Source: a virus
IMG/VR virus record: IMGVR_UViG_3300044825_000469
Coordinates: 1-41,316 of that record
Length of the DNA: 41,316 nucleotides
Strand: one strand, 5' to 3'
Made by a program: the position numbers and the translations under genes. A model generated the notes under the pieces. The model saw nothing but the letters and a program-made list of their open reading frames with translations. It did not search any database and was not told where the DNA came from. Below, piece after piece: positions 1 through 41,316 of the stretch. Every line of letters begins with the position of its first letter. Position 1 is the stretch's first letter.

Positions 1-268
1 CAGCCACACGCTACTTCCCCAGTTGCGTGTGTGGGTGGCGACTTCCACGGATGAGAAGAGGGTGAGGGCATATGGCCCAGCACGAGTATGATCTGCCTGA
101 CGATTTCGATGATTACGATGATGGTGCCATGACGCAGGTGCGTCGGGCACATAAGGCCGCTGTGAAGCGGTTGAAGGAACTTGAGGGTGAACTTCAAGGT
201 TATCGTGTCGAATCACGTAAGCGGACAGTGGCAGACGTTCTCGCGTCTCGCGGTTACAACCCGAAGAT
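1..268. repeat. Left copy of terminal overlap (circular closure)
   Basis: Bases 1-268 recur at 41049-41316. The first 127 bases are identical. The rest differ at only four sites (128, 203, 215, 230), all third codon positions of the scaffold gene and all silent. The simplest reading is a circularly closing assembly of about 41,048 bp in which the two ends came from slightly different strains. A true direct terminal repeat is less likely, because phage replication would normally keep its copies identical. Confidence 0.9.
5..31 (+). promoter_or_regulatory. Leader hairpin upstream of scaffold gene
   Basis: CACACGC at 5-11 can pair with GCGTGTG at 25-31 (7 bp, 13-base loop), 40 bases before the scaffold start codon. 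It is repeated at 41053-41079. It could be an mRNA leader structure or, with the hairpin at 41002-41028, part of a processing or attachment region. There is no T-run after it, so it is not an obvious terminator. Confidence 0.4.
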
Positions 269-575
269 CGCTGATTTGATCCCAGGGGATATCACTAACG
301 AAGCAGAGATTGTTTCTTGGCTTGATGAGAAGGCCGATGTGTTCCAGCCCACGACTGTGGCTGCGGACAGCGATGGCTCTCAGAATGAGCAGATGGACTT
401 TCAGCAGGATGTGATGGTTCCCCCTGGCTATCAGCAGTTCAATGAGGTTGTGAACGCGGGACAGGCACCGGCTGGTGACGAGTCGCAGATCATGGCAATG
501 ATTGCCGCTGCAAAGACACCGGAAGACCTGAACAGGATTCTGTTCCAGGGTTCCGGTGGTCCCCCGGTGTACTGA
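72..575 (+). CDS. Capsid assembly scaffolding protein (candidate)
   Basis: A 167-residue acidic protein directly upstream of the major capsid gene, the usual place for a scaffold. It has an Asp-rich N-terminus (about residues 7-19), a predicted coiled coil rich in Arg/Lys/Glu (about 23-50), a segment around 58-75 containing ASRGYNPKIADLIP, then a Gln/Pro-rich tail. This layout is typical of actinophage scaffolds. The purine-rich GAGGGTGAGGG sits just before the ATG. Identification rests on position and composition. A minor capsid or decoration protein is the main alternative. Confidence 0.7.
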   Translation: MAQHEYDLPDDFDDYDDGAMTQVRRAHKAAVKRLKELEGELQGYRVESRKRTVADVLASRGYNPKIADLIPGDITNEAEIVSWLDEKADVFQPTTVAADSDGSQNEQMDFQQDVMVPPGYQQFNEVVNAGQAPAGDESQIMAMIAAAKTPEDLNRILFQGSGGPPVY

Positions 576-619: not shown

Positions 620-1576
620 ATGCCTAATACCTACACTGGTACTAGCACGATCAGCAATCAGACTGGTATGACTAACCTTGTCCAGACTGCTTATGATCGT
701 TATGTTGAGATGGCACTGCGGTCGCAGCCGCTCATCCGTGACATTGCTGATAAGCGGCCCGTCCAGCAGGCCATGCCAGGTTCGTCTGTTGTTTTCCAGA
801 TTTATTCTGATCTGGCCCAGGCAACTTCGACCCTGACTGAAAACGTTGATCCTGATGCTGTTGCGCTGAGCAACACGACCACGGTCACTGTTACTCTGAA
901 CGAGTACGGCAATGCTGCCCTGCTCACCCGCAAGCTGGGTCTGTTCTCGCTGTCCGATGTTGATCCGGCTGCTGCTGACATTATCGCGTACAACATGGCT
1001 GACTCGCTTGACTCTGTTGTGATGACGGAGCTGCGTGGTGGTAGCAATGTTCGTTTCGCCCGTGACTCGTCCGACACTCCCACTCAGACTTCTGAGGTTG
1101 AGATCACGGACATCATCAAGGCTGACGACATTCGCTTCGTTGTTGCGAAGCTGCGTGCGAACCTTGCGGTTCCGCGTCAGGGTAGCCTTTACGCTGCCTA
1201 CATTCACCCTGAGGTTTCCTTCGATCTTCGCAAGGAGGCTACGGGTGGCGGGTTCCAGGATCTCCACAAGTATGATGCTACGGAGAACTTCTGGCCTGGA
1301 TTCATCGGTACGTTTGAGGGTGCTTACTTCATTGAGACTCCTCGCATGTACTCGGCAACGGATGGCGCGACTTCTGCTCGCGTGTACCGCACGATCATTG
1401 TCGGCAAGCAGGCACTGGCTGAGGCTGTTGCTGAGGAGCCGCACACGATCATGGGTCCGGTTACGGACAAGCTGATGCGTCACCGCCCTCTGGGCTGGTA
1501 TGGCGTTCTCGGGTGGAAGCGTTACCGTGAGGCTGCGCTTTACCGCATTGAGTCGGCTTCGTCTATCAACGCCTGA
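620..1576 (+). CDS. Major capsid protein, N4-gp56 family (HK97 fold)
   Basis: 318 residues. The N-terminal part (about 15-60) followed by LTENVDPDAVALS and the NEYGNAALLTRKL stretch matches the N4-gp56 type of major capsid protein, an HK97-fold shell subunit. The conserved order is an ENV/EGV-P turn, a beta strand, YG, then the long spine helix with SLDSVVMTEL. Length is usual for the family. AAGGTGGTGA precedes the start. It lies 44 bases after the scaffold gene, as expected of a head-assembly cassette. No protease gene is seen nearby, and N4-gp56 capsids do not always need one. Confidence 0.9.
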   Translation: MPNTYTGTSTISNQTGMTNLVQTAYDRYVEMALRSQPLIRDIADKRPVQQAMPGSSVVFQIYSDLAQATSTLTENVDPDAVALSNTTTVTVTLNEYGNAALLTRKLGLFSLSDVDPAAADIIAYNMADSLDSVVMTELRGGSNVRFARDSSDTPTQTSEVEITDIIKADDIRFVVAKLRANLAVPRQGSLYAAYIHPEVSFDLRKEATGGGFQDLHKYDATENFWPGFIGTFEGAYFIETPRMYSATDGATSARVYRTIIVGKQALAEAVAEEPHTIMGPVTDKLMRHRPLGWYGVLGWKRYREAALYRIESASSINA

Positions 1577-16221: not shown

Positions 16222-16838
16222 CCGACCGTGAGTTGCAGATCATCACGCAGGGGGCCACGAACGCGCACAAAGCACAACGAGAGTTCGTTCCGTTACCGGA
16301 TCTGATCAATGAGGGTGTGCTGTGGGCACTGGAGCATCCCAAGAAGATCGAACTGTGGCGGGACAAGGGAAAGTATGGGGAGAACCTGCTTCGGCACAGT
16401 GTGAAGCAGAAGTGCCTGTCTCATATCGCTAAGGAACGGCAGCGGGTGTACCGCCTAGAGCGAGAAGACATCGCCTACTACAATCCTGCCGTAGTCAGAG
16501 AGATCCTTCCCGACATTTTCAACATTGAAGACTGGCTGTCATCGGGTGCATCAAACGACATGGACAAGGTGTCGGGTGTGTCCCGACCCAGCGAAGGCAA
16601 CAACAGGCTCGCTGCTATTGTCGATGTGAAGTCAGGTTTCGATTCGCTGTCCGAAGAAGATCAGGGCCTGCTTCGGGATCTGTTCGAAGATGGTGGCCTG
16701 TCTCATCAGGTGCTGGCTGCCACACTAGATGTGACTGAGCGCACTGTGCAGCGACGCGAGGAGCGTGCTATCGGTAGGCTCGTGGACAAGCTCGGTGGTG
16801 AGCCTCCGTGGTGGAACGTGAAGGGAAGAGGCGCATGA
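16212..16838 (+). CDS. Sigma-factor-like helix-turn-helix regulator
   Basis: 208 residues, GTG start overlapping the phosphoesterase by 10 bases. N-terminal helices (DLINEGVLWALEHP, about 30-45, then SVKQKCLSHIAKERQ) recall sigma region 2. The C-terminal LSEEDQGLLRDLF plus LAATLDVTERTVQRREERAI (about 145-190) is a region-4-type HTH. The two are joined by an acidic linker. Such two-domain proteins could redirect host polymerase to phage promoters. The distance from true ECF factors is large, and a simple HTH activator is the alternative. Confidence 0.6.
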   Translation: MELTDRELQIITQGATNAHKAQREFVPLPDLINEGVLWALEHPKKIELWRDKGKYGENLLRHSVKQKCLSHIAKERQRVYRLEREDIAYYNPAVVREILPDIFNIEDWLSSGASNDMDKVSGVSRPSEGNNRLAAIVDVKSGFDSLSEEDQGLLRDLFEDGGLSHQVLAATLDVTERTVQRREERAIGRLVDKLGGEPPWWNVKGRGA

Positions 16839-25084: not shown

Positions 25085-26965
25085 GTGGCTGCTAGCTCTG
25101 CTGGTAGGAAGCGGAATGATCTTCCTGCTGAGGCTAAGAAGCGGTTTCTTGAGTTTTATGCTGAGGGGCGCACGATTAATGATGCGCTTCAGATGGCTGG
25201 CCGCACGAGGACGACGTATGAGGAGTGGCGGCGTAAGGATCCGCAGTTCGCTTTGGATGCTGACCGGATCAGGCAGATGCGCCAGGGGGCGCAGCATGTG
25301 AAGGGCGAGCAGATCCCTTTCTCAGAGTTTTCTGAGAGGTATTTGGATGCGCGGGTGTTTCCGCACATGCAGAATGTGGTGGATCTGATTGAGGGGGATG
25401 ACCCGTCCTGGCGTCATCCGGGAATGACGTATGAGCCGGGTGAGCGTGATCTGCTGATCGTGAACATGCCGCCGGAGCATGCGAAGACCACTTCGGTGAC
25501 GATCAATTATGTGACGTACCGGATTTGTATGGATCCGAATATTCGCGTGATCGTGGTGTCGAAGACGCAGGATATGGCGAAGAAGATGCTGTACGCGATC
25601 AAGACGCGCTTGACGCATCCGAAGTATGCGGAGATGATTGCGAACTACGCCCCGGTGGGTGGGTTTGAGAAGAACTCTGAGGCGTGGAATCAGAACATGA
25701 TCTACATCTCGGACGATGCACGCGATTCGGGCGAAAAGGACCCGACCGTCCAAGCTCTTGGCATCCGGGGTCACATTTATGGTGCGCGTGCTGATCTGAT
25801 CATCATGGATGACTGCGTGGATTTGACGAACGCGCACGAGTTTGAAAAGCAGATCGACTGGCTCCAGTCCGAGGTCATCTCCCGTATTAGCTCTACGGGT
25901 GCCTTGCTGGTGGTGGGGACCAGGCTGGCGTCGAAGGATCTGTATTCGGAGATCCGTGAGCCGCAGCGGTATCCCGATGAGGTGTCCCCGTGGACTTACC
26001 TGGCAATGCCTGCCCTACTGGACGCTGCGGACTCCCCTGAGGACTGGGTGACGCTGTGGCCTAGGTCGAATCAGCCAGAGCCTGGGGTGAAGGGCCGTGA
26101 TGCGGAGCCGGACGCGGAGGGCCTGTACCCGAAGTGGGATGGGCCGCGTCTGGCGAAGAAGAGGGCACGAGTTAGCCCAAGAGCATGGGCTCTGGTGTAC
26201 CAACAGCAGCAGGTAGCGGATGTCGGAATTTTTTCTGCCGAGGCTTTGCGGGCGTCTATCAACGGTAACCGCATGACCGGGCTCATGCCAAGGGGCATGG
26301 TGAACTGTCGCCCTGACGGGATGGATGGGCTGATATGTGTAGCTGGCTTGGACCCGGCTATGGCGGGGCACACGGCAGCCGTAGTGATCGGCCTGGACCC
26401 GGCGACACAAAAACGGTTCGTGCTGGACATTTGGAACAAGCCTGCGATGACACCGGACCAGATCAGGGATCTGATCAGGGAGTGGACATCGAAGTACGGC
26501 ATCACTGAGTGGCGTGTGGAAAAGAACGCTTTCCAGTCGATGCTCACCCAGGACCGTGAGGTCAGGGAGTACCTGGCTGGTGCTGGTGCCGTGCTGCGTG
26601 AGCATTTCACCGGATCCAATAAGCATGATGTTGATTTCGGTGTGGCGTCGATGACGACGCTGTGGGCTGGTTGGGAAGACAAGCGGCAACTGATCGAACT
26701 GCCTTCTACTGCTATCAGTGAGGCAGCGAAGTCGCTGGTGGAGCAGTTGCTGATTTGGCATCCTGCCGCACCGAAAACACAGAAGACAGATATTGTGATG
26801 GCTTTGTGGTTCGCTGAGTTGGCGTGCCGTGACCGCGTGATGGCGATGAGCAACTTTGCCCGGTCACACGTGAATAACCCGTTCGCTACCCGCTACGACA
26901 GGTCAACGCGGGCGACGGTTAATTTGAATGATGCGGAACGTGACCGCATGTTCGTGACCCTGTAG
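25085..26965 (+). CDS. terL: Terminase large subunit with N-terminal HTH
   Basis: 626 residues, GTG start. The packaging ATPase has the terminase Walker A variant MPPEHAKTTS (128-137) and Walker B DLIIMDDC (237-244). The RNase H-like nuclease has GLDPAMAG (Asp423), VEKNAF (about 478-483) and TDIVMALW (about 568-575). Residues about 15-60 (AKKRFLEFYAEGRTINDALQ and following) form a helix-turn-helix like that of small terminase subunits. No separate small terminase gene is seen, so recognition and cleavage may be fused. Confidence 0.93.
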   Translation: MAASSAGRKRNDLPAEAKKRFLEFYAEGRTINDALQMAGRTRTTYEEWRRKDPQFALDADRIRQMRQGAQHVKGEQIPFSEFSERYLDARVFPHMQNVVDLIEGDDPSWRHPGMTYEPGERDLLIVNMPPEHAKTTSVTINYVTYRICMDPNIRVIVVSKTQDMAKKMLYAIKTRLTHPKYAEMIANYAPVGGFEKNSEAWNQNMIYISDDARDSGEKDPTVQALGIRGHIYGARADLIIMDDCVDLTNAHEFEKQIDWLQSEVISRISSTGALLVVGTRLASKDLYSEIREPQRYPDEVSPWTYLAMPALLDAADSPEDWVTLWPRSNQPEPGVKGRDAEPDAEGLYPKWDGPRLAKKRARVSPRAWALVYQQQQVADVGIFSAEALRASINGNRMTGLMPRGMVNCRPDGMDGLICVAGLDPAMAGHTAAVVIGLDPATQKRFVLDIWNKPAMTPDQIRDLIREWTSKYGITEWRVEKNAFQSMLTQDREVREYLAGAGAVLREHFTGSNKHDVDFGVASMTTLWAGWEDKRQLIELPSTAISEAAKSLVEQLLIWHPAAPKTQKTDIVMALWFAELACRDRVMAMSNFARSHVNNPFATRYDRSTRATVNLNDAERDRMFVTL

Positions 26966-26973
26966 GAGGATGG

Positions 26974-28806
26974 GTGCCGACAACGGCTGAGGTTTCCAGC
27001 CTCTACAACAGGCTGCGTGTGCAGAACAATGACCGTGATCAGCGCATGCGGGACATTAAGCAGGTTCGTGCTGGGCAGATGGGGATGGTGTTCCCTGAGC
27101 TGTTTCCTGAGGATGGCCCGTTTACTCGCCCTATCGTGGCGAACATGGTGGATGTTGCTGCGCGTGACCTGTCTGAAGTTATCGCGCCTCTGCCGTCTTT
27201 CAACTGCTCCAGTTCTTCTATGGTGTCGGATTCTGCGCGGAAGCGTGCGGAGATGCGTACCCGTATCGCCACCTACTACGTGCAGTATTCGCAGCTACAG
27301 AAGCAGGCTTATACTGCCGCTGATCGCTTTGTGACTTACGGTTTCGTTCCCGGTATCGTGGAGATCGACTGGGACGAGAAGATGCCGCGCATCAAGTGGC
27401 TTGACTCTATGGGCACGTACACAGTGCGTGACCGGCGTGACCGTGTGAAGGCACTGTTTCAGACGATCAACTATCACGTGGATGATCTGGTCGCGAAGTT
27501 CCCGCAACTACAGAACGTGATCTTGCAGCAGGTCCCTGGCATGTCCACAAAGATTGAGGTCGTGAGGTATCACGACAAGGATGTGGACATCCTGTTCCTG
27601 CCCGGTGATGGTGGTATTGAACTGATCCGCACACCGAACCCCGTGGGCAAGTGCCTCGCGGTTGAGGTGCGTCGCCCCGGCCTGGATGAGGATCCGCGTG
27701 GTCAGTTCGATGATGTGATCGCGGTTCAGGTGGCGAAGGCACGTTTCGCGCTACTCGCGATGGAGGCCGCACAGAAGTCGGTGCAGGCACCTATCGCCCT
27801 GCCGCAGGATGTGCAAGAACTGTCGCTGGGTGCTGACGCTGTGCTGCGGTCTACGACACCTGAGAAGATCCGGCGTATCCCGCTTGAAGTTCCTGCTGCC
27901 GCGTTCCAAGAGCAGGGCGTGCTTGACAACGAACTGCGTCAGGGTTCCCGTTACCCTGAGGTTCGTGGCGGCAACCTGGATGCATCTATCGTCACGGGCC
28001 GTGGCGTGCAGGCGTTGATGACTGGGTTCGACACCCAGGTGCGTACAGCGCACGCCATGTTTGCTGAGGCTTACACTGATCTTATCGCCCTCTGCTTTGA
28101 GGTGGAGGAGCGATGCTGGCCGTCGTTCCGTAAGACTGTTCGCGGCAACGACAACGGTACACCGTATGAGGTTACATACTCGCCCGAGAAAGACATCAAG
28201 AACGATTACTCGGTCGATGTTCAGTATGGCCTCATGGCGGGTCTGGACCCTAACCGCGCACTGGTGTTTGGGTTGCAGGCCCGTGGTGACCGTCTTATTT
28301 CCCAGGACTGGCTGCGCCGTTCTTTGCCGTTCTCGCTGAACGCGACAGAGGAAGAGCAGAAGCTGGACATTGAGGATATGCGTCAGGCGCTGCGTCAAGC
28401 AGTGTCTGGCTACGCGCAGGCTATCCCGGTGCTGGCCCAGAACGGTCAAGATCCTGGTGAGATTCTTACCCGCCTTGCTGTGATCATTGAGGGCAGGCAG
28501 AAGGGTAAGCCGATTGAGGAAGTGATCGCTGAGGCTTTCGCTCCCCAAGAGCCGCCACCTGGCATGGTTGAGCCTGCGGATGTTGGCGCTTCCCCGGTCC
28601 CTGGCGCACCTGGCGAGGCTCCCATGCCAGGTGGTGAGTCTATGGAAGGCATTGATGCTTTCGGTAGGCCGCGTGGTGTTGCACCTGGGCAGGCTGGTTT
28701 GCCGCCTGGTGGGCGTCCTGATTTGAACTTCTTGCTGGCTGGGTTGTCGTCAACTGGGCAACCTAACTTGTCAGCTTCTGTGTCTCGTCGTGTTCCGATT
28801 GCATAA
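26974..28806 (+). CDS. Portal protein
   Basis: 610 residues, GTG start after AGGAGGATGG. Directly follows terL, the standard position. Typical portal features: N-terminal helices, the mixed core around FVTYGFVPGIVEIDWDEKMP (about 120-140), a long helical stem/clip region, and a proline-rich C-terminal tail (PQEPPPGMVEPADVGASPVP) that is probably disordered inside the head. It should form the dodecameric gate for DNA. Confidence rests on position, length and overall pattern. Confidence 0.8.
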   Translation: MPTTAEVSSLYNRLRVQNNDRDQRMRDIKQVRAGQMGMVFPELFPEDGPFTRPIVANMVDVAARDLSEVIAPLPSFNCSSSSMVSDSARKRAEMRTRIATYYVQYSQLQKQAYTAADRFVTYGFVPGIVEIDWDEKMPRIKWLDSMGTYTVRDRRDRVKALFQTINYHVDDLVAKFPQLQNVILQQVPGMSTKIEVVRYHDKDVDILFLPGDGGIELIRTPNPVGKCLAVEVRRPGLDEDPRGQFDDVIAVQVAKARFALLAMEAAQKSVQAPIALPQDVQELSLGADAVLRSTTPEKIRRIPLEVPAAAFQEQGVLDNELRQGSRYPEVRGGNLDASIVTGRGVQALMTGFDTQVRTAHAMFAEAYTDLIALCFEVEERCWPSFRKTVRGNDNGTPYEVTYSPEKDIKNDYSVDVQYGLMAGLDPNRALVFGLQARGDRLISQDWLRRSLPFSLNATEEEQKLDIEDMRQALRQAVSGYAQAIPVLAQNGQDPGEILTRLAVIIEGRQKGKPIEEVIAEAFAPQEPPPGMVEPADVGASPVPGAPGEAPMPGGESMEGIDAFGRPRGVAPGQAGLPPGGRPDLNFLLAGLSSTGQPNLSASVSRRVPIA

Positions 28807-29978: not shown

Positions 29979-30482
29979 GTGCCAGCAGCCCTTGAGCTGC
30001 CACCCGATGTTCGCAAAGTAGACGGTCGCTGGTTGCGCGACTGCCCCTCTTGCGGAGGGGTGGTCAGCCACCTACGACGCAACTATGCAGTACATGCCTC
30101 GCTGAACAGCCAGCCTTGCAAGAAGTGCAGCAACGTTTCTAATCATCCTTCAGGGATGGTCGGTAGCGTTCGTGTTGCCTGGTACAACTCGTTCAGCAAG
30201 AGCGCAATCTCCCGTGGCCTTGATTGGGAGATCAGCATTGAGTTCATTGATGCCCTGTACGAGATGCAGGGCGGTGAATGTGCGCTGACCGGGATGCCGA
30301 TTGGTTGGTCTGAGCAGTATTGGGATCACACGGCATCCATTGATCGCATTGACAATGAGCGTGGCTATTGGCCCGACAACGTCCAGCTCGTCCATAAGCA
30401 AGTCAACATGATGCGTGGCTCGCTAGAGATCGAGCGGTTTGTTGAGTTGTGCAAGTTGGTAGCCGACAAAGTTAAGTGGTAG
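29979..30482 (+). CDS. HNH endonuclease, free-standing homing type
   Basis: 167 residues, GTG start. Zinc knuckles CPSC (22-25) and CKKC (47-50) precede the HNH core: GGECALTGMPIGW, SIDRIDNERGYWPDNVQLVH (about 120-139) and NMMRGS. It resembles intronless homing endonucleases that sit between phage structural genes. It could alternatively be the DNA-nicking HNH partner of the terminase, seen in some phages, but its position away from the ends of the packaging cassette favours homing. Confidence 0.8.
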   Translation: MPAALELPPDVRKVDGRWLRDCPSCGGVVSHLRRNYAVHASLNSQPCKKCSNVSNHPSGMVGSVRVAWYNSFSKSAISRGLDWEISIEFIDALYEMQGGECALTGMPIGWSEQYWDHTASIDRIDNERGYWPDNVQLVHKQVNMMRGSLEIERFVELCKLVADKVKW

Positions 30483-31181: not shown

Positions 31182-34100
31182 GTGGCTCGCCCCCAGCTTC
31201 CTGCATCTTCACGGCCCACCTATTTCGGTGGTACACCGACAAGTAACACAGGGTACGACCGGCCTGATCTTCTTCGCGATTCTGTTTACCAGGCTGAGAA
31301 CCGGCCTAGCGCCCTTGATTTTTCAGACGAGGCCATCCAGCAGCGTCAGGTCGTTGTGCGCCAGGGCGCTATTGACGAGTTGCAGGCGGCACGACAATTA
31401 CTCGCTGAAGCGGGTCCGACTGGATGGGTTGCTCCCGGTGCCGTACCTGAGGGTTTTGAGGACGGCACCCCGCAGGCTCGCGTCAATCAAGCGTACATTG
31501 CTTACACGATTGCCTTGCACGGCTCACGGGCAGCGAACCTTCAGAACTACCCGACCCTGGCTAAGGCCGCGATTGAGGCGAACGTTGACGAGGCTGACCT
31601 TGCACGCCTAGTGAACTACGCCGAGGTGGACCGGGCCGCTGAGCGCGTGCTGGGTGCCTTGAACCTCGTCTACAACGAGGAGGGCGATGAGGCGAAGTCC
31701 AGTCTGGGTCAGTATCAGGTTGACAATATCTTGAACTCTGCGAATCCGGTGATGAAGGCCGCGATTCTTGATGTGGTTGCAGAGAAGATCAAGGAGCTTG
31801 AGGCACCGGGTGGGACCGATTCTGCCTCGTGGGCTGACACGCTTATTGAGAACGCCGGACAGATCCTTGACACACTTTTCACTCCGTTTGTTGTCGCTAA
31901 TGAGGCTGTACAGCAGGGTGTTCGTGCTGGAATGTACGGCAGCCAAGTGGAAACCTCTCAGGCGTTCGCCCCGATAGGTATCCCCCAGAACATTTTCGAG
32001 TATTGGGACAAGGTAACCGAAGGCAACTACGACCAGAAGCTGCTGTCCTCAGCACGGCAAGAGTACGGGCCTGCGGCTGTTGACCTTGTCCTTGCGGTGG
32101 AGAAGAAGACCCTTGAGGGTGATCCTGATCCGCTCGTCTCAGTGATGATGGAGCAGGCCAACAACCCCGAGGCCATGAATCTCCTGTCAGACATGCTGTA
32201 CGGGGAGAACTCCACGGGCATAAACATGGCTGAGGTTTCTCGGGCCGTGGACAATGCTGCACTGGGAAACACGGGTCAGTTGTTCTTGACTGGCGTCCTG
32301 GGTGATGTCGGCATGGGTTCTGAGGCTCGCGCCCGAGGAGCAAATGCGACCAACATTGTTGCGACGCTGGCGCTTGATCCGACTCTTCTTGCTGGCAAGA
32401 TCCGTGCCGCCTACATCACGACACGCTTCGCGCTAGAGAAGATCGCCCCTGGCGCGTCTCGCGCTGGTATCAAGTCGGCGCTCAACATGCGTCCAACTCG
32501 CGTGTACTTCGAGGGGCTGTTCAATCAGCTCAACAGGTACGACGAACTGGTGCAAACTAACCCAGGTCAGGCTGCTGTGCTGCGTGAGCAGATTCGCCGC
32601 CAGTACCCCGAGATCCCAGACAACACGATTGATGTGTTCCGTCAGGACGGGGTCAGGACTGTTGATGATCTCGTTGACTGGACTGTTGAAACCAATGAGA
32701 TGTTCACGAAGTTGGCGAAGGGTCAGCCTGCTACTGGGTTGATCTCTGCTGGTGAGTCTGCTGCTCCTGAGCCGCTTGCGAATGCGATCTTCAATCGCGG
32801 TCAGGCTCAGACCCGTGACGCCCTGCTCCCCCGTACTTCGATCGCTCGTCGTGCCCGTAGCAGCTTTGCACGTTCTATCAGTCCACTGATGCCGTCACGT
32901 CGTGGGCAGGCAGTGATCGAGGACGTGTACGGCAATACATCAAACGTTGATGACTTTGTTGAGACTGTGTCGGATGTCGCCAATGTCTCAAGGGCTGGGG
33001 TCATTGAGCGTGCCGGTATTGAAACCGGCACTCCTGGCGCAGTAGGCAAGAAGGTAGACACCGTCTTCAAATACTTCTCGTCTATTGGCATCGGGCATGT
33101 CAACATTGTTGACGGTCGTGACGCGAAGCAGGTGTATCGCTACGCACGCATGTTCCTGTCGCGTAGGCATGCAGCCTATTGGGCTGATATGTGGCGTAAG
33201 GCGACCCCGTCGCAGCGTTACGACATGATGATTGGTCTGAATCGGACGGCTGCTGCGGCTAAGGGTCTGGATCTGACTGATCCTGAGATGCTTGCCCGTG
33301 TTGATGAGCTGGTGACGGCTACGCGGACGAAGACTTCATTCAGTGCCAAGTCTCCTACCCTGTCGCAGGCTGCCGCACCCGTTGAGGCACCTGAGGCGTG
33401 GCCCGGTGGGCCTGCGCTCTTTCACGGTACTAGCAGACCTATTGGTAGGTTCCGTCCCACAGATGAAGAAACCGAGTTCGTTGCTCAGGGCTTTGGCACG
33501 CGCACCTTTGCTCGCTTTGAGGAAGGCCCGCTTTCGGGCGATCAGTCCACAAGCCTGTACGGTGGCATCTTCTACGCCACTGTTGATCGTGAGCGTGCCG
33601 CCACCTACATGAAGAAGGGCGCGGCTAAGCCGGGACGCGCTCGAAAGGCTGATGTTTGGGATGAGCAAGGACGATCCGTAGGAACTATCTATGGATTGCC
33701 TGACGAACCGAAGATGTACAACGTCAGGTGGGTTGGATCGGAGCCTCCACGCTTTCTTGACCTAGATCAGCCTGCGCCGCAGCGGCTGCGTGATCTAGCA
33801 TCCGGTGCAGGATTCTTTGATGAGATCGGCATCAATGCTGCTGACGATTACGCCGACGAGTTCGCGGCCCTACTGAATGACCCCCAGAGCACCGGGGCGC
33901 AGATTCTTGACTTCATCCGCACTAGGGGCGGCAGTGAGGCCTTTGACAATCTGCAAACCGTGTGGATGACACTGGCTGATGAGGGCTTTGACGGCTATAA
34001 GCATGTCGGTGGGACCAAGGCCGGTAGGGGTCAGAAACTTCACGATGTGTACATCTTCTTCAATGAGAACAACATCAACGCTATACCTGAGCCGGAAGCA

Positions 34101-37100
34101 GTCGCGTCAACGATTGATATGACTATTCCGTCTCTGTTCCCTGACGGTTCAGAGAAGGCGCTGTTTGGCTGGCAGACAGCAAGCCACGTCGCCCTGCCGA
34201 ATATCCGTGAGATGGAGAAGTTGGGTCGCTGGCAGCGGTTCGTCTCCGAGCATGGCGGCACACTCGGTGAAGCCATACTTGCAGCGCCTCAGCGTGTAAC
34301 GGATGCCTGGTCACTCGGCACACTCTTCGGTCTGCGGTTCTCCCTACGCTCCGCTATCGAGGACTGGTGGTTCTACGCCGTCATTACGGGTGGGAACCTG
34401 AAGGATCTGTACAAGGGTCGCCGCATGTCCACGATCCTGCGTGAGACACGGGGTCGCAGGCGTGAGACAGCGTTCAGTGGTGGCAAGAAGGATGTCCCTG
34501 CTCTGGGCATGATTAACCGTCGCGCTCGCGCTGTCGGTGACATGCTTGAGAACCGGGACAACTTTGCCGCTCAGATCCTGGGCAGTTTCATTCGCGGCAA
34601 CCTCGATCAGGAAGACGTACAGGCTGCCTACCAGGCCGCTCGCAGGGGCAACTTCGATCCAATGCGTCGCCTAGCTGGTGTCGCTATGGCCTCAGCGCGG
34701 ATGACCGGCTTTTCTTCCGCTGAGAAGGAGTACCTGCTTGATCTTGTGGACGGTCCGTTCGGTCTGAAGATTCTGGATGAGCTTGCCGAGACTGGGCGCA
34801 CACTGAACAGCGGTGGCCTCGTGGATGAGGCTGCACTTCCGATTGCTGGGACGGACACGGTTGGTGTGTCGGCTGGGGCACTGCCCCGCACGGATAACGG
34901 CAAACTGGTCCCGGTTGGTGATTACACTCCTGAGCTGCCTGTTGATCCGGTGCTGCCTGAGTCGTTCCTGTACTGGGAGCGGAACATCAATGGCGTGATG
35001 CTGGGTGATGGCCCTGCTGGGCGTATCGCTGTTGCTTACCTTGATGACCCTCAGGAGGCCATTCGTCGGGTTGCTGACGAGATCCGCAATGACCCCACCG
35101 GGTACGGGTACAAGTGGCGGTTCGCTGCCCTGGAGTCTGAGTCACCGGAAATGTTCGCTGCCCGAAAGGTGCAGGCAGTTCGGGCCATGTTTTCGGATGC
35201 TCAGGGGAACCTGAACGAGAACCTGTGGCGCAAGGTGGTTAGTCCTGATCGTACTGTCCGTGCCTACGCTGAGGCTGAGGATGGCACTCGAGGCCTCATC
35301 ATCGATGCAGGCGTGTTGAGGGCTTTGCCGAAGGAGCAGCGTCCTGCCTATGTTTCGGGACAGGTCTACGGCACTCCTCCCACGGCAAACGGTCTCGGTG
35401 CTTTTATGGACCGCTCGTGGTCATGGATGGGTGAGCAGTACGCACGCATCTCACGCGAGCCAATCTTCCTTGCCAACTACATTGCCCATCGCAGGCAGCT
35501 CGCTGGCTACCAGCGGGAACTGACTGAAGAACTGGGCGAGAAGGCCGCACGCCGCGTCGTCTCACGCATGGCTGAAGACCGGGCGTACTCGTTCACGTTG
35601 TCGTACATGGATAACCCACAGAATAGGTCACTGCTGGCATACAAGGTTCGTAACGTGTCCCGTTACTACCGGGCTACGGAGGATTTCTACCGCCGCGCAA
35701 TGCGTGCGGGAAAGAACTACCCGGTTGGCTTGTGGAAGACGGCCCTGATCTACGACGTTCTTGATGACACGGGTTTTGTGTACACGGACGACAATGGCGA
35801 CAAGTACTTCCTGTACCCAGGAACGAACCAGTTGATGTCCGCGATGAGCGAGGTGTACGGAAAGATTTCAGGCCAGGACCAGATGGAAATGCCGTACCCG
35901 TTTGTCTTGGGTGGCAAGGTCAGGATGCTGGCTCCCTCCACGGACCCGAATCAGCTCACCCCCACCCTTGCGGGTCCGTGGGGAACGATCTCGTGGAAAC
36001 TACTTGCTCGCCGCTTCCCATCCCTATCGCGACTGAACCGGGTCGTTCTGGGTGAATACGGGAGAACGGGCGAGGGCAGTGTCATTGATGACTTCACGAC
36101 ATCGTTCTTCCCCGGTCAGTTGCAGCGTGCCATCAATACTCTCAGTGATGACGAGGTTGATTCGCTTGTTGCGGCGTCAGCGAAGGATGCTCTCACTATC
36201 GCGGTTGTCAATGATTTGATTCCTGAGGACGAGAACACTCCTGAGTTTGCGAACGCCATGGCGAAGATTGACATGATCGCCTGGTCCGCTGTTCTGGGAC
36301 GATTCTTTACTGGGTTTGTGTTCCCTGCGTCACCGCAGCAGTTCAATGCAAATATCAACGAGTTCGCTCGCCGGAACCGTGTGGTGGCTCCGAGGCCGGC
36401 GTTCCTGAAGATGGTGCAGAAGTATGCCGATCAGGGGGAAGAGAACCCTGTGGGTGCGGCTTTGGCGAACTGGTGGAAGTTGGATCAGAACCTGATGCCG
36501 TTTACGGTGAGCCGCACTCAGGATGTGGATGAGGGTGTGCGCGGCACGGCCCCGTTGAAGACTGCTAAGTCTGTGCTGGATTGGTACAACAACAACCGTA
36601 CCGGGATCATCGAGAAGTACCCGCAGACTGCGTACTTCCTTGCGCCTCAGGACGAGGGATTTGACTGGAACACTTGGGGTCTGATCGTCGCAGAGGGTCT
36701 GCGGGTGCCTAAGGCGATGCTGGATAAGAATGGCGATCCTGGCCCGTTCCTTCGGGATCTGTTCGCCGCTCAGGGTGAGTTCCAGTATTACGCGACTATT
36801 GCTGACTATCAGCGGGACATTGACGCCCTGGATCCTCGTGACCCTGAACAGTACCGCCGCATCAGGGAACTTGAGGAGCAGCGGTCTGCTGATCTTGAGG
36901 GTGTTCGCACCAGCAACCCGTATCTGGATTTGAAGCTGGCTGAGAACAGCAACTGGGGTGAGCGTGATGTTGTTGCGGAGCGTGCCCTAACTCAGACGAA
37001 GCGCATGGTAGACGAACTGTTCGAGTCGACTCCGAGGGATGACTGGAATGGCTCCCCCGCTCAGGCAATCCGTAACGCGATCTACACCTACATTGATTAC

Positions 37101-37301
37101 GCGAGTGAGATCAAGATGACGGTGGGCGCTGATGATGCGTCTGAGTACAAGCGTCGCATGCTGCGTCTGGATCTTGAGACTGACCTTGAGGGTATCGCTG
37201 CGTCTAGCCCGAATGCGAAGTTGTTTATCAGGAATGTGTTGATGTCCGATCCTGACATTAAGGTGCTGGACTTGGAACTGGTTGGGGCTGCAAATGAGTG
37301 A
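31182..37301 (+). CDS. Giant virion protein with ADP-ribosyltransferase-like domain
   Basis: 2039 residues, GTG start. Mostly helical. Residues about 742-970 carry an inserted domain: LFHGTSR (His748), LYGGIFYATVD (792-802) with AATYMKK after it, GFDGYKHVG, and VYIFFNENNI near 954. This follows the H...Y...(E/Q) plan of ADP-ribosyltransferases (ART-PolyVal type). Flanking regions read on as one protein. Likely an internal or ejected protein. The ART could modify a host target on entry, as T4 Alt does, but the catalytic residues need a structural check. Confidence 0.75.
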   Translation: MARPQLPASSRPTYFGGTPTSNTGYDRPDLLRDSVYQAENRPSALDFSDEAIQQRQVVVRQGAIDELQAARQLLAEAGPTGWVAPGAVPEGFEDGTPQARVNQAYIAYTIALHGSRAANLQNYPTLAKAAIEANVDEADLARLVNYAEVDRAAERVLGALNLVYNEEGDEAKSSLGQYQVDNILNSANPVMKAAILDVVAEKIKELEAPGGTDSASWADTLIENAGQILDTLFTPFVVANEAVQQGVRAGMYGSQVETSQAFAPIGIPQNIFEYWDKVTEGNYDQKLLSSARQEYGPAAVDLVLAVEKKTLEGDPDPLVSVMMEQANNPEAMNLLSDMLYGENSTGINMAEVSRAVDNAALGNTGQLFLTGVLGDVGMGSEARARGANATNIVATLALDPTLLAGKIRAAYITTRFALEKIAPGASRAGIKSALNMRPTRVYFEGLFNQLNRYDELVQTNPGQAAVLREQIRRQYPEIPDNTIDVFRQDGVRTVDDLVDWTVETNEMFTKLAKGQPATGLISAGESAAPEPLANAIFNRGQAQTRDALLPRTSIARRARSSFARSISPLMPSRRGQAVIEDVYGNTSNVDDFVETVSDVANVSRAGVIERAGIETGTPGAVGKKVDTVFKYFSSIGIGHVNIVDGRDAKQVYRYARMFLSRRHAAYWADMWRKATPSQRYDMMIGLNRTAAAAKGLDLTDPEMLARVDELVTATRTKTSFSAKSPTLSQAAAPVEAPEAWPGGPALFHGTSRPIGRFRPTDEETEFVAQGFGTRTFARFEEGPLSGDQSTSLYGGIFYATVDRERAATYMKKGAAKPGRARKADVWDEQGRSVGTIYGLPDEPKMYNVRWVGSEPPRFLDLDQPAPQRLRDLASGAGFFDEIGINAADDYADEFAALLNDPQSTGAQILDFIRTRGGSEAFDNLQTVWMTLADEGFDGYKHVGGTKAGRGQKLHDVYIFFNENNINAIPEPEAVASTIDMTIPSLFPDGSEKALFGWQTASHVALPNIREMEKLGRWQRFVSEHGGTLGEAILAAPQRVTDAWSLGTLFGLRFSLRSAIEDWWFYAVITGGNLKDLYKGRRMSTILRETRGRRRETAFSGGKKDVPALGMINRRARAVGDMLENRDNFAAQILGSFIRGNLDQEDVQAAYQAARRGNFDPMRRLAGVAMASARMTGFSSAEKEYLLDLVDGPFGLKILDELAETGRTLNSGGLVDEAALPIAGTDTVGVSAGALPRTDNGKLVPVGDYTPELPVDPVLPESFLYWERNINGVMLGDGPAGRIAVAYLDDPQEAIRRVADEIRNDPTGYGYKWRFAALESESPEMFAARKVQAVRAMFSDAQGNLNENLWRKVVSPDRTVRAYAEAEDGTRGLIIDAGVLRALPKEQRPAYVSGQVYGTPPTANGLGAFMDRSWSWMGEQYARISREPIFLANYIAHRRQLAGYQRELTEELGEKAARRVVSRMAEDRAYSFTLSYMDNPQNRSLLAYKVRNVSRYYRATEDFYRRAMRAGKNYPVGLWKTALIYDVLDDTGFVYTDDNGDKYFLYPGTNQLMSAMSEVYGKISGQDQMEMPYPFVLGGKVRMLAPSTDPNQLTPTLAGPWGTISWKLLARRFPSLSRLNRVVLGEYGRTGEGSVIDDFTTSFFPGQLQRAINTLSDDEVDSLVAASAKDALTIAVVNDLIPEDENTPEFANAMAKIDMIAWSAVLGRFFTGFVFPASPQQFNANINEFARRNRVVAPRPAFLKMVQKYADQGEENPVGAALANWWKLDQNLMPFTVSRTQDVDEGVRGTAPLKTAKSVLDWYNNNRTGIIEKYPQTAYFLAPQDEGFDWNTWGLIVAEGLRVPKAMLDKNGDPGPFLRDLFAAQGEFQYYATIADYQRDIDALDPRDPEQYRRIRELEEQRSADLEGVRTSNPYLDLKLAENSNWGERDVVAERALTQTKRMVDELFESTPRDDWNGSPAQAIRNAIYTYIDYASEIKMTVGADDASEYKRRMLRLDLETDLEGIAASSPNAKLFIRNVLMSDPDIKVLDLELVGAANE

Positions 37302-38268
37302 TCGTGTGTATGTTCCCGGCTACGGCTATGTCGGTGGCGAGGACAACACGGGTTCAGCTCGTGGCACTGGTGGATCTCGCCCCAGCCCTGCACCTTCGGG
37401 CCGCGAACGCCGCACTTGGTTCGGTACGGATGCCGTTAGGCGTGCCCGTGAGAATGCAACGACTGTTGACGGGTCACAGAGGGGCAAGTACGGGACTCCA
37501 GATGGCACCCCGTCTGAGGACCCGGTTGCTACGGCACCGAGAGTTCGACCTGATCTGACCCTACCGATCACCTACCGGCCCCCGGTCAGTATGTGGCGTA
37601 CCGCAGATCGGCAAGAGCAGGAGGTGGGCACTCTGCCGCTGCTGTACCGCATTCAGGACGCGGGTGATCTGCGTGAAGCATTCTGGGGTGATCCTGAGTC
37701 TCGGGCGATCATTCAGGCTGCTGCGCGTATCTACTATCGGGACTACCCGAACTACAACGATCAGTGGGCTGAGGGCTGGTGGCAGAAGGACATCATGGGC
37801 GCTGCCCAGAACCCCGGTGCTGTGCCTCCGTGGGAGATGCTGCAACTGATCTTCACTGAGGGCGCGAAGGCTGAGTCAGCGCCTGACGGTTCATCACCGT
37901 CCACCTATGGTGGAGGTAGCGGTGGTGGTGGCTATTCCGGTGGCGGCGGTTACGGCGGTGGCGGAGGTGGTCAGGTCAGCCTGACGAACCCGACCTCCGC
38001 TAAGGGCCTGTTGATGCAGACAATGCAGCAGGCACTTGGTCGTAACCCGACACAGAATGAGTACAGCCAGTTCTTGAAGATTCTGAACGAGGCTGAGATG
38101 GCTAACCCACAGACTGTCTCCTTTGAGGACGGTATGGCTGTCGGTTCCGGGGGTGTTGATCCTGGGGTTCTTGCGATGGAGTTCGCTCAGGACGCTGAGG
38201 ATTACCGCGAGCGTCAAGGTGACCAGTATTTCCAAGTGTTCATGCAGTCGCTGGCTGGGGGTGCATGA
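37294..38268 (+). CDS. Virion structural protein with Gly-rich linker
   Basis: 324 residues from MSDRVYVPGYGYVGGEDNTG; the ATG overlaps the giant's stop by eight bases. The N-terminal half is charged, about 205-232 is a glycine/tyrosine repeat linker, and the C-terminal domain carries SAKGLLMQTMQQALGRNPTQ and NEYSQFLKILNEAEM. This C-terminal type recurs in structural genes of related phages. Probably part of the injected or internal complex. Confidence 0.65.
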   Translation: MSDRVYVPGYGYVGGEDNTGSARGTGGSRPSPAPSGRERRTWFGTDAVRRARENATTVDGSQRGKYGTPDGTPSEDPVATAPRVRPDLTLPITYRPPVSMWRTADRQEQEVGTLPLLYRIQDAGDLREAFWGDPESRAIIQAAARIYYRDYPNYNDQWAEGWWQKDIMGAAQNPGAVPPWEMLQLIFTEGAKAESAPDGSSPSTYGGGSGGGGYSGGGGYGGGGGGQVSLTNPTSAKGLLMQTMQQALGRNPTQNEYSQFLKILNEAEMANPQTVSFEDGMAVGSGGVDPGVLAMEFAQDAEDYRERQGDQYFQVFMQSLAGGA

Positions 38269-39422
38269 TGACTGATCAGCGCATCCCTGACTCTGGTGCA
38301 CCGGCTTCTGGTGGCCCTAATGATGTGAAGAGAAAGCCTGAGGCCATTCGTATCGCGGAGCGTGACATCCGCCTTGCGGAGCAGGCTCTTGCTGATGAGA
38401 AGAAGACGGGTTCAGAGACTTCGATTGCTGCTGCTGAGGACCGCCTGCGGGAAGCTCGGGCGGCTCTTCGCAGGATCCGTAAAGCTGACCCTGGTGAGGA
38501 CCGGCGCGAGGCTCGCCGGGACTTCATGGAGGACTATTTCAATCGTCTTGGTCCCGAGGTGGCAAACCTTGTTAGGACGGATGATGAACTGCGTCAGTTG
38601 TTTGATGAGGCTGTGCGTAAGGGTTGGGATGCTCAGACGTTTAACAGTGAGTTGAAGAAGACTGACTGGTGGAAGGATCCGAAGAAGGGCCTGTCGTGGC
38701 GTAACGCTTTTGAGCTGGAGTTTAACAACCCGCCTGGGGTGTGGAATGAGGCTCTGAAGACTGCTCGGGATAAGATCAGCGAACTTGCGAACGAGTTGTA
38801 CAACATTGTTATTCCTGATGATGTGTTGAATCAGATTGCTCGCCGCTACTACTACCAGGGTTGGAATAGCAACGAGCGTGGCTTGAAGGTGTGGCTTGCT
38901 AGACAGTTCAGGAACCAGTCTGCCGCTCCTGATGCTAACTTGACCCCTGGTGGTGCGCTTCTGGACACGGAGCGCACATTGTCTGAGGCTGCTCGTGAGT
39001 ATGGTTTGACTCGTGATGCTGATTGGGCGCGGAAGACTGCCCAGCGGATTTTGAATCCTAATGCGAAGTATGACGAGGATGACGCCTGGAATGAGTTGAT
39101 CACTGAGGCCGAGTCGAAGTATCCGGTGTTTGCTGGTCGCTTGTCGAAGGATCGTTCGGTTCGTGATCTGGCTTCGGGCTATATTGGTGAGCTTGCTCAG
39201 ATGCTGGAGATCAGGGACCCGAACTCGATTGACCTGTCTGATCCGCTGTTGAAGCGTGCTTTCACGAGTCTTGATGAGAAGAACCAGCCACGGCTGATGC
39301 CGTTGTGGGAGTTCAACCAGGCGATTAAGAAGGATGAGCGTTGGCAGTACACGAATAACGCTCTCAATACTTATTCGAGTATCGGGTCTGATTTGGCTCG
39401 CATGATGGGATTCGTGGGGTAG
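38265..39422 (+). CDS. Virion structural protein, helical
   Basis: About 385 residues; ATG 38265 overlaps the previous stop (ATGA), ATG 38268 is an alternative. The N-terminal coiled coil (about 30-90, rich in E/R/A: ERDIRLAEQALADEKK) is followed by a repeated helical unit: DELRQLFDEAVRKGWDAQTF, then TDWWKDPKKG and WARKTAQRILNPNAKYDEDD. No catalytic motif is seen. Its helical units resemble those of the next gene. Confidence 0.65.
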   Translation: MMTDQRIPDSGAPASGGPNDVKRKPEAIRIAERDIRLAEQALADEKKTGSETSIAAAEDRLREARAALRRIRKADPGEDRREARRDFMEDYFNRLGPEVANLVRTDDELRQLFDEAVRKGWDAQTFNSELKKTDWWKDPKKGLSWRNAFELEFNNPPGVWNEALKTARDKISELANELYNIVIPDDVLNQIARRYYYQGWNSNERGLKVWLARQFRNQSAAPDANLTPGGALLDTERTLSEAAREYGLTRDADWARKTAQRILNPNAKYDEDDAWNELITEAESKYPVFAGRLSKDRSVRDLASGYIGELAQMLEIRDPNSIDLSDPLLKRAFTSLDEKNQPRLMPLWEFNQAIKKDERWQYTNNALNTYSSIGSDLARMMGFVG

Positions 39423-39424
39423 GT

Positions 39425-40867
39425 ATGGCTAAGCAGACTGACGCCGATAAGGCTATTGAGAAGGTCAATCAGCTTCGCCGGGATGGCAAGATCACTCAGA
39501 AGGAAGCGCAGTCGCTGCGTAAGACTGTTCGCAGGAGGGCGACGGCGGTCGGTGCTTTGGGTGGCAGTGACCGCCGGGTGATTTCTGCGGCGAAGCGGAA
39601 GGCGACTGGTGGGGCTTCGGGGCAGCCTCCGAGTGGTGCTAGCCCTGGCGCTCCTTCTGGTGGCCCTAACCCTCAGCCTGGTTCTGGGTCTGGTGGTGGC
39701 GGTTCAGTAACACCTCCCGAGCCTGATGAGGAACCACGACCTGGCTACAAGTGGGTGTGGAACGCGGAGACACAGTCTTGGACTGAGACGAAACGAACGA
39801 AGGATGACAAGCCGACCCAAGTTCTTCCTGAGGGCTACGAGTGGGTGTGGGATGACGCAACGGGGTGGGGATTTCGTGAGGTCTCTGCCTCTGGCGATCC
39901 AGGCTCAGAGTCCGGTTCAGGTGGCGACGGCGAACCAGCGGAGCCAACTGGCCCCGACGCGCAGACATTAGCCACACGAGCCAATGCCCGTGAATACCTG
40001 AAGGGTCTGTTCAAGCAGTTTGGTTTCTCTGACGAAGACAGCGCGAAACTAATGGGCGATGTTGAGGGCTGGATCCAGTCTGGTTTGGCTGATGCTGGTA
40101 CGGACGCGGTGCTGATGAAGTTCCGTGACACGGATATCTATAAGCGCCGTTTTGCTGGCATGTCTGAACTGATTTCTCGTGGTCAGGCTATCACTGAGGC
40201 TGAGTACATTGGACTTGAGTCCTCGTACCGTAATGTCATGTCTAACTACGGTATTGATCCGACATACTATGACTCGCCTGAGGATTATGCTCGCTTGATT
40301 GGTGCTGGTCTTTCTGTGCGTGAAGTTGAGGAGCGGGTTGTTGCCGCGAAGCAGGCAATGAATCCTCTCGTGGCTGCTGAGTTGCGTCAATATTACGATG
40401 TGAGTGACGGTGACCTGACGGCATACATGCTTGGTTTGACTAACGAGCAGGGTTTGCGTTTCAAGGCTGACCGTAATGAGGCTATCCGCACCCAAGAGGG
40501 TATTCGCGGGATTGCTCGTACTGCACAGATTGGTGCTGCTGCGGAGCGTGCAGGGTTCAGCATGGACCGTGCCTACGCTGAGCGTCTTGCTGGTACTTCT
40601 GTGGGTGCAACGATTGACCCGTTCCAGATGGGAACCCTGGCTCAACTTGAGGGCGAGTTCGGTAGGGCTCGTCGTGTCGCTGAGAGGGAGACAACTCTTG
40701 CCGGAATCGACCGTGAAGCGTTTGATCAGAGGGACGCTCTTGCTGCTGCTTTCGGTGATGAGCAGGCGAGGCTCGCGTCGGAGAGGCGTGCACGGCGTGA
40801 GCGTGCGCGGTTCGCTGGCTCGGCTGGCACTGCTGCGGGGTCTCTCGGGGTCGAAAGGAACCTCTAG
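39425..40867 (+). CDS. Virion structural protein with WVW repeats
   Basis: 480 residues. N-terminal basic helix (1-65), a Pro/Gly linker (70-105), then two copies of a short WVW motif, KWVWNAETQSWTE and EWVWDDATGWGF, about 30 residues apart. The C-terminal 300 residues are helical and share the DEDSAKLMGDVEGWIQS and DTDIYKRRFAGM type of units with the previous gene. The last helix is Arg/Ala-rich (AFGDEQARLASERRARRERA). Probably an internal or ejection protein. Confidence 0.65.
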   Translation: MAKQTDADKAIEKVNQLRRDGKITQKEAQSLRKTVRRRATAVGALGGSDRRVISAAKRKATGGASGQPPSGASPGAPSGGPNPQPGSGSGGGGSVTPPEPDEEPRPGYKWVWNAETQSWTETKRTKDDKPTQVLPEGYEWVWDDATGWGFREVSASGDPGSESGSGGDGEPAEPTGPDAQTLATRANAREYLKGLFKQFGFSDEDSAKLMGDVEGWIQSGLADAGTDAVLMKFRDTDIYKRRFAGMSELISRGQAITEAEYIGLESSYRNVMSNYGIDPTYYDSPEDYARLIGAGLSVREVEERVVAAKQAMNPLVAAELRQYYDVSDGDLTAYMLGLTNEQGLRFKADRNEAIRTQEGIRGIARTAQIGAAAERAGFSMDRAYAERLAGTSVGATIDPFQMGTLAQLEGEFGRARRVAERETTLAGIDREAFDQRDALAAAFGDEQARLASERRARRERARFAGSAGTAAGSLGVERNL

Positions 40868-41048: not shown

Positions 41049-41316
41049 CAGCCACACGCTACTTCCCCAGTTGCGTGTGTGGGTGGCGACTTCCACGGAT
41101 GAGAAGAGGGTGAGGGCATATGGCCCAGCACGAGTATGATCTGCCTGACGATTTCGATGATTACGATGATGGTGCTATGACGCAGGTGCGTCGGGCACAT
41201 AAGGCCGCTGTGAAGCGGTTGAAGGAACTTGAGGGTGAACTTCAAGGTTACCGTGTCGAATCGCGTAAGCGGACAGTAGCAGACGTTCTCGCGTCTCGCG
41301 GTTACAACCCGAAGAT
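41049..41316. repeat. Right copy of terminal overlap
   Basis: Repeats bases 1-268. Differences are C128T, T203C, A215G and G230A (left numbering), all silent. See the left copy. Confidence 0.9.
41120..41316 (+). CDS. Scaffolding protein, partial second copy
   Basis: First 65 codons of the scaffold gene, cut by the window end. The amino-acid sequence is the same as in the left copy despite four base changes. In a closed genome this and the left copy are one gene. Confidence 0.85.
   Translation, partial: MAQHEYDLPDDFDDYDDGAMTQVRRAHKAAVKRLKELEGELQGYRVESRKRTVADVLASRGYNPK

What the first reader, a model, noticed from the sequence alone, without database searches (positions are those of the whole stretch)
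33400..34090. ADP-ribosyltransferase-like domain inside a 2039-residue virion protein
Residues about 742-970 have the H...(GGIFYATVD)...GFDGY...VYIFF pattern of ART domains of the polyvalent-protein type, flanked by long helical regions that read on as one protein. If ejected with the DNA, it could modify host targets at once, like T4 Alt, but in an actinophage with a giant protein. I do not know of this arrangement being described.
Basis: partly seen in the sequence, partly recalled or inferred. Interest (0 to 1): 0.8.

Follow-up and report, generated by a model that had tools for sequence, protein, structure and literature searches.

The report
Swappable effector slot in podophage protein
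A giant protein that a short-tailed phage probably packs in its particle and ejects into the bacterium carries, at one fixed internal site, a domain that looks like a known protein-modifying enzyme (an ADP-ribosyltransferase), and related phages have a different enzyme, an unknown domain or nothing at that same site, which suggests a swappable bay for delivering early-infection effectors.

Summary
The 2039-aa ORF (31182-37301) contains, at residues about 740-972, a domain with all landmarks of phage polyvalent-protein ADP-ribosyltransferases (ART-PolyVal). H748, Y798 and D937 match the family's H-Y-D active site. Pfam does not detect it; a profile from 70 phage ART-PolyVal domains ranks it first among 4,302 tiles (13.1 bits, E 0.026). 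Structure prediction was too weak to prove the fold.

The larger finding is the site. About 120 relatives of the giant protein share both flanks, and this one site is the length hotspot (20 to 1,078 residues). An 88%-identical relative carries a different ART here (28% identical; sharp DNA breakpoints). Others carry GNAT acetyltransferases, unknown domains or a 20-30-residue linker. The giant lies in a conserved portal-giant-three proteins-scaffold-capsid block shared with cultured Streptomyces podoviruses (Beephvirinae gp9, hhalign E 3.4e-10), so it is probably an ejected internal virion protein.

Best reading: a podophage ejection protein with an exchangeable effector bay, here loaded with an ART that modifies host targets early, as T4 Alt does, though it is not an Alt-family enzyme. 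Virion-borne phage ARTs are already described; the carrier family and the internal slot appear new. Packaging, ejection and activity are inferred.

The parts
31182..37301 (+). Giant 2039-aa protein: putative internal virion / ejection protein that carries the slot
   Evidence: Open ORF, GTG start aligned with that of L003; family of about 120 distinct giants; homologous to Beephvirinae gp9, hhalign E 3.4e-10 over 759 columns
31182..33342 (+). Conserved N-terminal part of the backbone (residues 1-720)
   Evidence: 77% aa identity to L003; DNA identity ends at 33342
33343..34115 (+). Variable slot (residues 721-978)
   Evidence: DNA match to L003 stops at 33342 and resumes at 34116; length hotspot, sd 118 and maximum 1018 aa, over 116 giants
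33399..34097 (+). ART-PolyVal-like domain 'ART-A' (residues 740-972)
   Evidence: Rank 1 of 4,302 tiles with the ART-PolyVal profile; motif constellation
33423..33425 (+). His748 of HGT, predicted active-site H in strand 1
   Evidence: H in 71/71 aligned ART domains
33573..33575 (+). Tyr798 of GGIFYAT, predicted active-site Y in strand 2
   Evidence: Y in 46, F in 17, W in 6 of 71
33990..33992 (+). Asp937 of GFDG, invariant Asp; predicted active-site D
   Evidence: D in 71/71; the family's active site is H-Y-D (PMC5512222). That this is the catalytic D is inference
34116..37301 (+). Conserved C-terminal part of the backbone (residues 979-2039)
   Evidence: 89% aa identity to L003; 25% to ct2KA10; aligns with Beephvirinae gp9 from its residue 605 on
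37282..38268 (+). 328-aa protein, same operon (candidate ejection-set partner)
   Evidence: Syntenic homolog in Immanuel3 at 31% and in L014 at 61%
38265..39422 (+). 385-aa protein, same block; homolog annotated 'peptidase' in Immanuel3
   Evidence: tblastn 29% in L216; annotation; phrog_6654
39425..40867 (+). 480-aa protein, same block
   Evidence: phrog_8424; syntenic homologs at 26-32%
25085..26965 (+). Terminase large subunit
   Evidence: phrog_38, E 5.7e-65
26974..28806 (+). Portal protein
   Evidence: phrog_104, E 1.4e-22
72..575 (+). Protein in the scaffold position, the next gene of the block across the circular join
   Evidence: phrog_7813; lies directly before the capsid gene in the relatives read
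620..1576 (+). Major capsid protein
   Evidence: phrog_1357, E 6e-84; 53% identical to Streptomyces Beephvirinae

Best explanation
The 2039-residue protein is an internal (ejection) virion protein of a short-tailed phage related to Streptomyces Beephvirinae. Its conserved N- and C-terminal parts form the delivery chassis. Between residues 720 and 979 lies an exchangeable slot that here holds an ART-PolyVal-type NAD+-dependent ADP-ribosyltransferase. The protein is packed in the head, leaves with the DNA through the short tail, and the ART, now in the host cytoplasm, ADP-ribosylates a host protein (or a nucleic acid or defence component) at the very start of infection, to favour takeover or blunt a defence. 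Related phages load other effectors (a different ART, GNAT acetyltransferases, unknown domains) or none, by recombination at that site. Shown here by sequence: the ART signature, one hotspot slot, cassette replacement, homology and synteny with podoviruses. Inferred: packaging, ejection, enzymatic activity, target.
For: ART: motif constellation, profile rank 1 of 4,302 tiles, H-Y-D and other near-invariant residues. Second ART: the L003 slot hits Pfam ART-PolyVal at E 1.8e-5, below its gathering score, and the 70-domain profile at 21.5 bits. Slot: it is the one length hotspot of 116 giants, with contents of 20-1,078 aa. Window and L003: backbone 88% identical, slot 28%, whereas in 454 other pairs the slot tracks the backbone (84% against 87%); sharp DNA breakpoints at 33342 and 34116. 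GNATs in the L188 slot (PF13673, 34.9 bits, cut-off 23.6) and L081 slot (PF00583, at its cut-off), while giants 74-80% identical lack them. Podovirus context: Beephvirinae homology, conserved TerL-portal-giant-p328-p385-p480-scaffold-MCP order, and Abafar (Beephvirinae) is a podovirus by TEM (PMC11536984).
Against: No direct evidence that the protein is in the virion or ejected. Pfam does not recognise ART-A. AlphaFold models are poor (pLDDT 43 without an alignment, 60 with one) and Foldseek gives no significant PDB match; the viral-library hits to ART-PolyVal proteins (probability 0.63 and 0.44) come from a model built with ART sequences and are therefore partly circular. Only two giants carry an ART, so most relatives do without one. 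The third catalytic position is assigned by alignment only.
Confidence: 0.66

Rival explanations
1. The slot is a fast-evolving, tolerant linker of a structural protein. The ART resemblance in the window is a decayed or fortuitous sequence, and the domain has no enzymatic role.
For: ART-A is below Pfam detection and models are poor; many relatives have plain helical or short linkers there; L018 keeps only the C-terminal half of an ART-B-like domain (BLAST E 5e-7), so decay happens.
Against: In 454 pairs without an effector-like slot the slot evolves at the backbone rate, so it is not a fast-evolving linker; H, Y, D and other near-invariant residues are intact in ART-A; two different ARTs and GNATs occupy the site.
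Confidence: 0.17
2. The ART is active but works late, inside the producing cell or in the particle (for example on phage or host proteins during assembly), rather than being injected as an early effector.
For: The gene lies in the late structural block; the giant could be a scaffold-associated assembly factor; no proteomics exists.
Against: Homology and position match podovirus gp9-type proteins next to other putative ejection proteins. In L014 portal and capsid are 90-92% identical to the window but p328, p385, p480 and the giant only 61, 53, 45 and 31%, the pattern expected of host-facing ejection proteins, which are known to be mosaic (PMC8954989).
Confidence: 0.12
3. The ART is a self-modifying or NAD+-consuming weapon that blocks superinfecting phages or kills competitors, as proposed for MuF toxins.
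For: MuF polymorphic toxins are packaging-module proteins with exchangeable toxin domains, proposed to be delivered by phages (PMC5576092).
Against: No immunity gene: the next gene overlaps the giant's end and is conserved. No MuF match. The variable domain is internal, not C-terminal. No relatives were found in 84,980 prokaryote genomes, which argues against prophage carriage.
Confidence: 0.05

Closest known systems
ART-PolyVal domains of phage polyvalent proteins (Pfam PF18760; prototype in the vRNAP of Roseovarius Plymouth podovirus 1, CBX87992)
   Same: Same landmark order and same H, Y, D residues; inside a giant protein encoded among late genes; predicted to be carried in the virion (PMC5512222)
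   Different: The carrier is not an N4-like vRNAP and shows no metallopeptidase or other recognised domain; the ART is a large divergent form with insertions that Pfam does not detect; it sits in an exchangeable internal slot
T4 Alt
   Same: Would act likewise: a virion-borne ART delivered with the DNA to modify host proteins at once
   Different: Alt belongs to the Alt/VIP2 clade with R-S-E residues and is a separate ~680-aa protein (size from memory); here H-Y-D inside a 2039-aa protein
Beephvirinae gp9 (Streptomyces phages Immanuel3, Manuel, FlowerPower; hypothetical protein)
   Same: Homologous backbone, same gene order, same size class
   Different: No insert at the slot is seen: the post-slot part of the window protein aligns from gp9 residue 605 on
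MuF polymorphic toxins of temperate phages
   Same: Packaging-module protein with exchangeable effector domains
   Different: MuF toxins have an N-terminal MuF domain and a variable C-terminus; here no MuF domain is found, both ends are conserved and the variable part is internal
Podovirus ejection proteins (T7 gp14/gp15/gp16, P22 gp7/gp16/gp20)
   Same: Internal virion proteins of short-tailed phages, mosaic, with swappable enzymatic domains such as a transglycosylase (PMC8954989)
   Different: No sequence relation tested or shown; the swapped domains here are host-modifying, not peptidoglycan-cutting

Membership tests
ART-PolyVal (PF18760) | Match to the curated Pfam model above its cut-off | tested here: not met
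   Window: no match up to E 5, also in the whole record. L003: 25.9 bits, cut-off 31.2
ART-PolyVal (PF18760) | Profile similarity to phage ART-PolyVal domains | tested here: met
   13.1 bits, rank 1 of 4,302 tiles, E 0.026; marginal, and not significant with a smaller profile
ART-PolyVal (PF18760) | Active-site H (strand 1), Y (strand 2), D (strand 5) | tested here: met
   H748, Y798, D937 in the aligned positions; strand assignment not verified
ART-PolyVal (PF18760) | ART fold | tested here: inconclusive
   pLDDT 43 and 60; no significant Foldseek match; weak ART-PolyVal hits from an alignment-guided model
ART-PolyVal (PF18760) | NAD+-dependent ADP-ribosylation | not testable with these tools
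   Needs biochemistry
T4 Alt (Alt/VIP2 clade) | R-S-E active site | tested here: not met
   The domain aligns as H-Y-D; clade definition from PMC5512222
Polyvalent protein | Two or more recognised domains in one polypeptide | tested here: not met
   Only the ART is recognisable; Pfam, NCBIfam and PHROGs give nothing else
Polyvalent protein | Encoded among late, virion genes | tested here: met
Podovirus internal/ejection protein | Homolog in a phage of proven podovirus morphology, same gene order | tested here: met
   Beephvirinae gp9, synteny; Abafar has a gp9 homolog 81% identical to that of Immanuel3 and is a podovirus by TEM
Podovirus internal/ejection protein | Present in virions and lost or ejected on infection | not testable with these tools
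   No proteomics found
MuF polymorphic toxin | N-terminal MuF domain with variable C-terminus and immunity gene | tested here: not met
   No MuF hit; internal slot; downstream gene overlaps and is conserved

The most novel reading that the evidence does not exclude
The giant protein is a natural delivery chassis: a podophage ejection protein with one internal 'cargo bay' into which unrelated effector domains (ARTs of different sorts, GNATs, unknown domains of 300-1,000 residues) are swapped by recombination without change to the carrier, so that each phage lineage injects its own early effector.
Probability: 0.45. Interest if true: 0.75.

Novelty: new variant of a known kind. Interest (0 to 1): 0.52.

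Why it matters
If true, one conserved coordinate in an abundant but almost wholly uncultured podophage family (one hit in 50,697 phage records by tblastn, about 120 distinct giants in IMG/VR) tells where to look for new early-infection effectors, most of them in unknown sequence (for example the 1,078-aa insert of L009). It also makes a question testable in cultured Streptomyces podoviruses: whether gp9-type proteins are ejected and can carry a folded enzymatic domain into the host. It extends virion-borne ARTs, so far noted mainly in N4-like vRNAPs, MuF fusions and myoviruses, to a new carrier.

Tried and rejected
Pfam, NCBIfam, PHROGs and PDB sequence searches with the giant and the segment: nothing significant. 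tblastn of the segment in phages and plasmids and a peptide-pattern scan of IMG/VR with the segment alone: nothing. Giant family in GTDB genomes: none. Direct BLAST of ART-A against ART-B: E 0.08, not significant. hhalign of ART-A against small ART alignments: not significant, so a deeper set was collected. One script read gapped alignment rows by mistake and was repeated. AlphaFold without an alignment: pLDDT 43, and its fold search uninformative; with an ART alignment: pLDDT 60, partly circular. Idea that the backbone is related to the C-terminus of N4-like vRNAP or to Bacillus phage Page gp20: no support (hhalign E 0.16 and 0.34, shuffles 0.34-0.67). Idea that the slot is a generally fast-evolving linker: rejected by the pairwise comparison. 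T4 Alt membership: rejected on active-site residues.

Full report
Observation. The window is one virus record of 41,316 bases whose ends overlap by 268 bases at 98.5% identity, so it is probably a complete genome opened at an arbitrary point. ORF 31182-37301 encodes 2,039 residues without a stop. The named motifs are at the stated place: HGT 748-750, GGIFYATVD 794-802, GFDGY 935-939, VYIFF 956-960.

Is it an ART? Curated libraries miss it, so the claim had to be tested another way. Known phage ART-PolyVal domains were gathered, starting from the prototype vRNAP of Roseovarius Plymouth podovirus 1, in which Pfam places ART-PolyVal at 1023-1096, then by tblastn and an IMG/VR scan (at least 597 relatives). 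A profile of 70 of these gives the window domain 13.1 bits, against at most 4.5 bits in 3,000 shuffles, and it ranks first of 4,302 tiles of real phage ORFs (E 0.026; tiles laid without regard to the slot rank next at 10.5 and 8.1). Alignment puts H748, P864 and D937 at positions invariant in 71 domains and Y798 at the Y/F/W position. This is the H-Y-D set given for polyvalent-protein ARTs (PMC5512222), not the R-S-E of T4 Alt. The signal is good for a set of colinear motifs but modest statistically: a 14-sequence profile is not significant, and the motif expression was loosened to admit the window. Structure prediction did not settle it. The model built with the ART alignment has pLDDT 60 and pTM 0.52; it has no significant PDB match and only weak viral-library matches, among them two annotated ART-PolyVal proteins (E 0.05 and 0.27), and that model is partly circular. 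ART identity is put at about 0.8.

The slot. L003 (IMG/VR) encodes the same giant, 88% identical outside residues 722-985, but between window bases 33342 and 34116 no DNA similarity is detected. Its insert is another ART: Pfam ART-PolyVal E 1.8e-5, below the gathering score, 21.5 bits with the 70-domain profile. Scans with family alignments brought 209 loci and 120 distinct giants. In an alignment of 116, the interval at window residues 753-981 has by far the largest length variation (sd 118, maximum 1,018 aa; next the N-terminus, sd 47). Slot lengths run from 20 to 1,078 aa. Contents: ARTs (window, L003); the C-terminal half of an ART-B-like domain in L018; GNATs in L188 and L081, with a 57%-identical relative of the former in L189; unknown domains in L009, L011, L024/L089, L109, L141; and short linkers in many, including the next-nearest relatives of the window (L007 and L006, 37-39% identical; 25-33 aa). 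As a control, among pairs of giants 70-97% identical that have no effector-like slot, the slot is on average nearly as conserved as the backbone (84% against 87%, 454 pairs). The two outliers are window/L003 (88% against 28%) and L188/L189 (92% against 54%). The exchange therefore concerns effector cassettes and is not general drift of a linker.

What the carrier is. The gene order TerL-portal-giant-328-385-480-scaffold-capsid is kept in the relatives read, and three of the proteins downstream of the giant (328, 385, 480) have direct tblastn matches in Streptomyces phage Immanuel3. The capsid is 53% identical to those of Streptomyces Beephvirinae, and the backbone aligns with their gp9 (hhalign probability 97%, E 3.4e-10, 759 columns). 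Abafar, a member whose gp9 is 81% identical to that of Immanuel3, is a podovirus with a very short tail (PMC11536984). No other window ORF is longer than 628 aa, so no long tape measure is evident. In L014 portal and capsid are 92% and 90% identical to the window, yet the 328-, 385- and 480-aa proteins and the giant's C-half are 61, 53, 45 and 31%: the putative ejection set looks exchanged as a block, in line with the mosaicism reported for podovirus ejection proteins (PMC8954989). No proteomics was found. The host is likely actinobacterial, but this is not shown.

Mechanism. Most likely the giant is packed, ejected with the DNA, and its slot domain acts in the cell before phage genes are expressed. 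For the ART the act would be ADP-ribosylation of a host macromolecule, target unknown. Packaging, ejection and catalysis are inference.

Known or new. Large virion-embedded phage proteins with ART domains, and ARTs fused to head proteins, are described (PMC5512222, PMC9503650), as is domain reshuffling in orthologous polyvalent proteins of Helicobacter phages and exchange of C-terminal toxins on MuF. What appears new is the carrier family, annotated 'hypothetical' in the cultured members read, and the single internal slot with conserved flanks on both sides.

Noticed in passing
L014 (IMGVR_UViG_3300044825_000944) against the window: Portal 92% and capsid 90% identical to the window, but the giant's C-half only 31% and p328/p385/p480 61/53/45%: the putative ejection module looks exchanged as a block between phages with nearly the same capsid.
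   Followed up: partly
L009, residues 820-1897 of its giant: A 1,078-residue insert in the slot with no Pfam match; a part of it is shared with the inserts of L109 and L141.
   Followed up: partly
L018/L019 slot: Slot holds only the C-terminal half of an ART-B-like domain (BLAST E 5e-7 to L003), apparently a decayed ART.
   Followed up: partly
L188 and L189 slots: GNAT-containing slots only 54% identical in giants that are 92% identical elsewhere: a second case of fast cassette change.
   Followed up: partly
L075: The giant is split into two ORFs (725 and 1,038 aa), a frameshift or assembly error near the slot.
   Followed up: no
window 1-268 and 41049-41316: 98.5% identical ends: the record is probably a complete genome with an overlap.
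   Followed up: yes
window 29979-30482: Endonuclease VII-like HNH protein between portal and giant that also matches PHROGs named Srd anti-sigma factor and decoy of host sigma70.
   Followed up: no
window 16212-16838: Protein with a sigma-70 region 4 match, a possible phage transcription factor.
   Followed up: no
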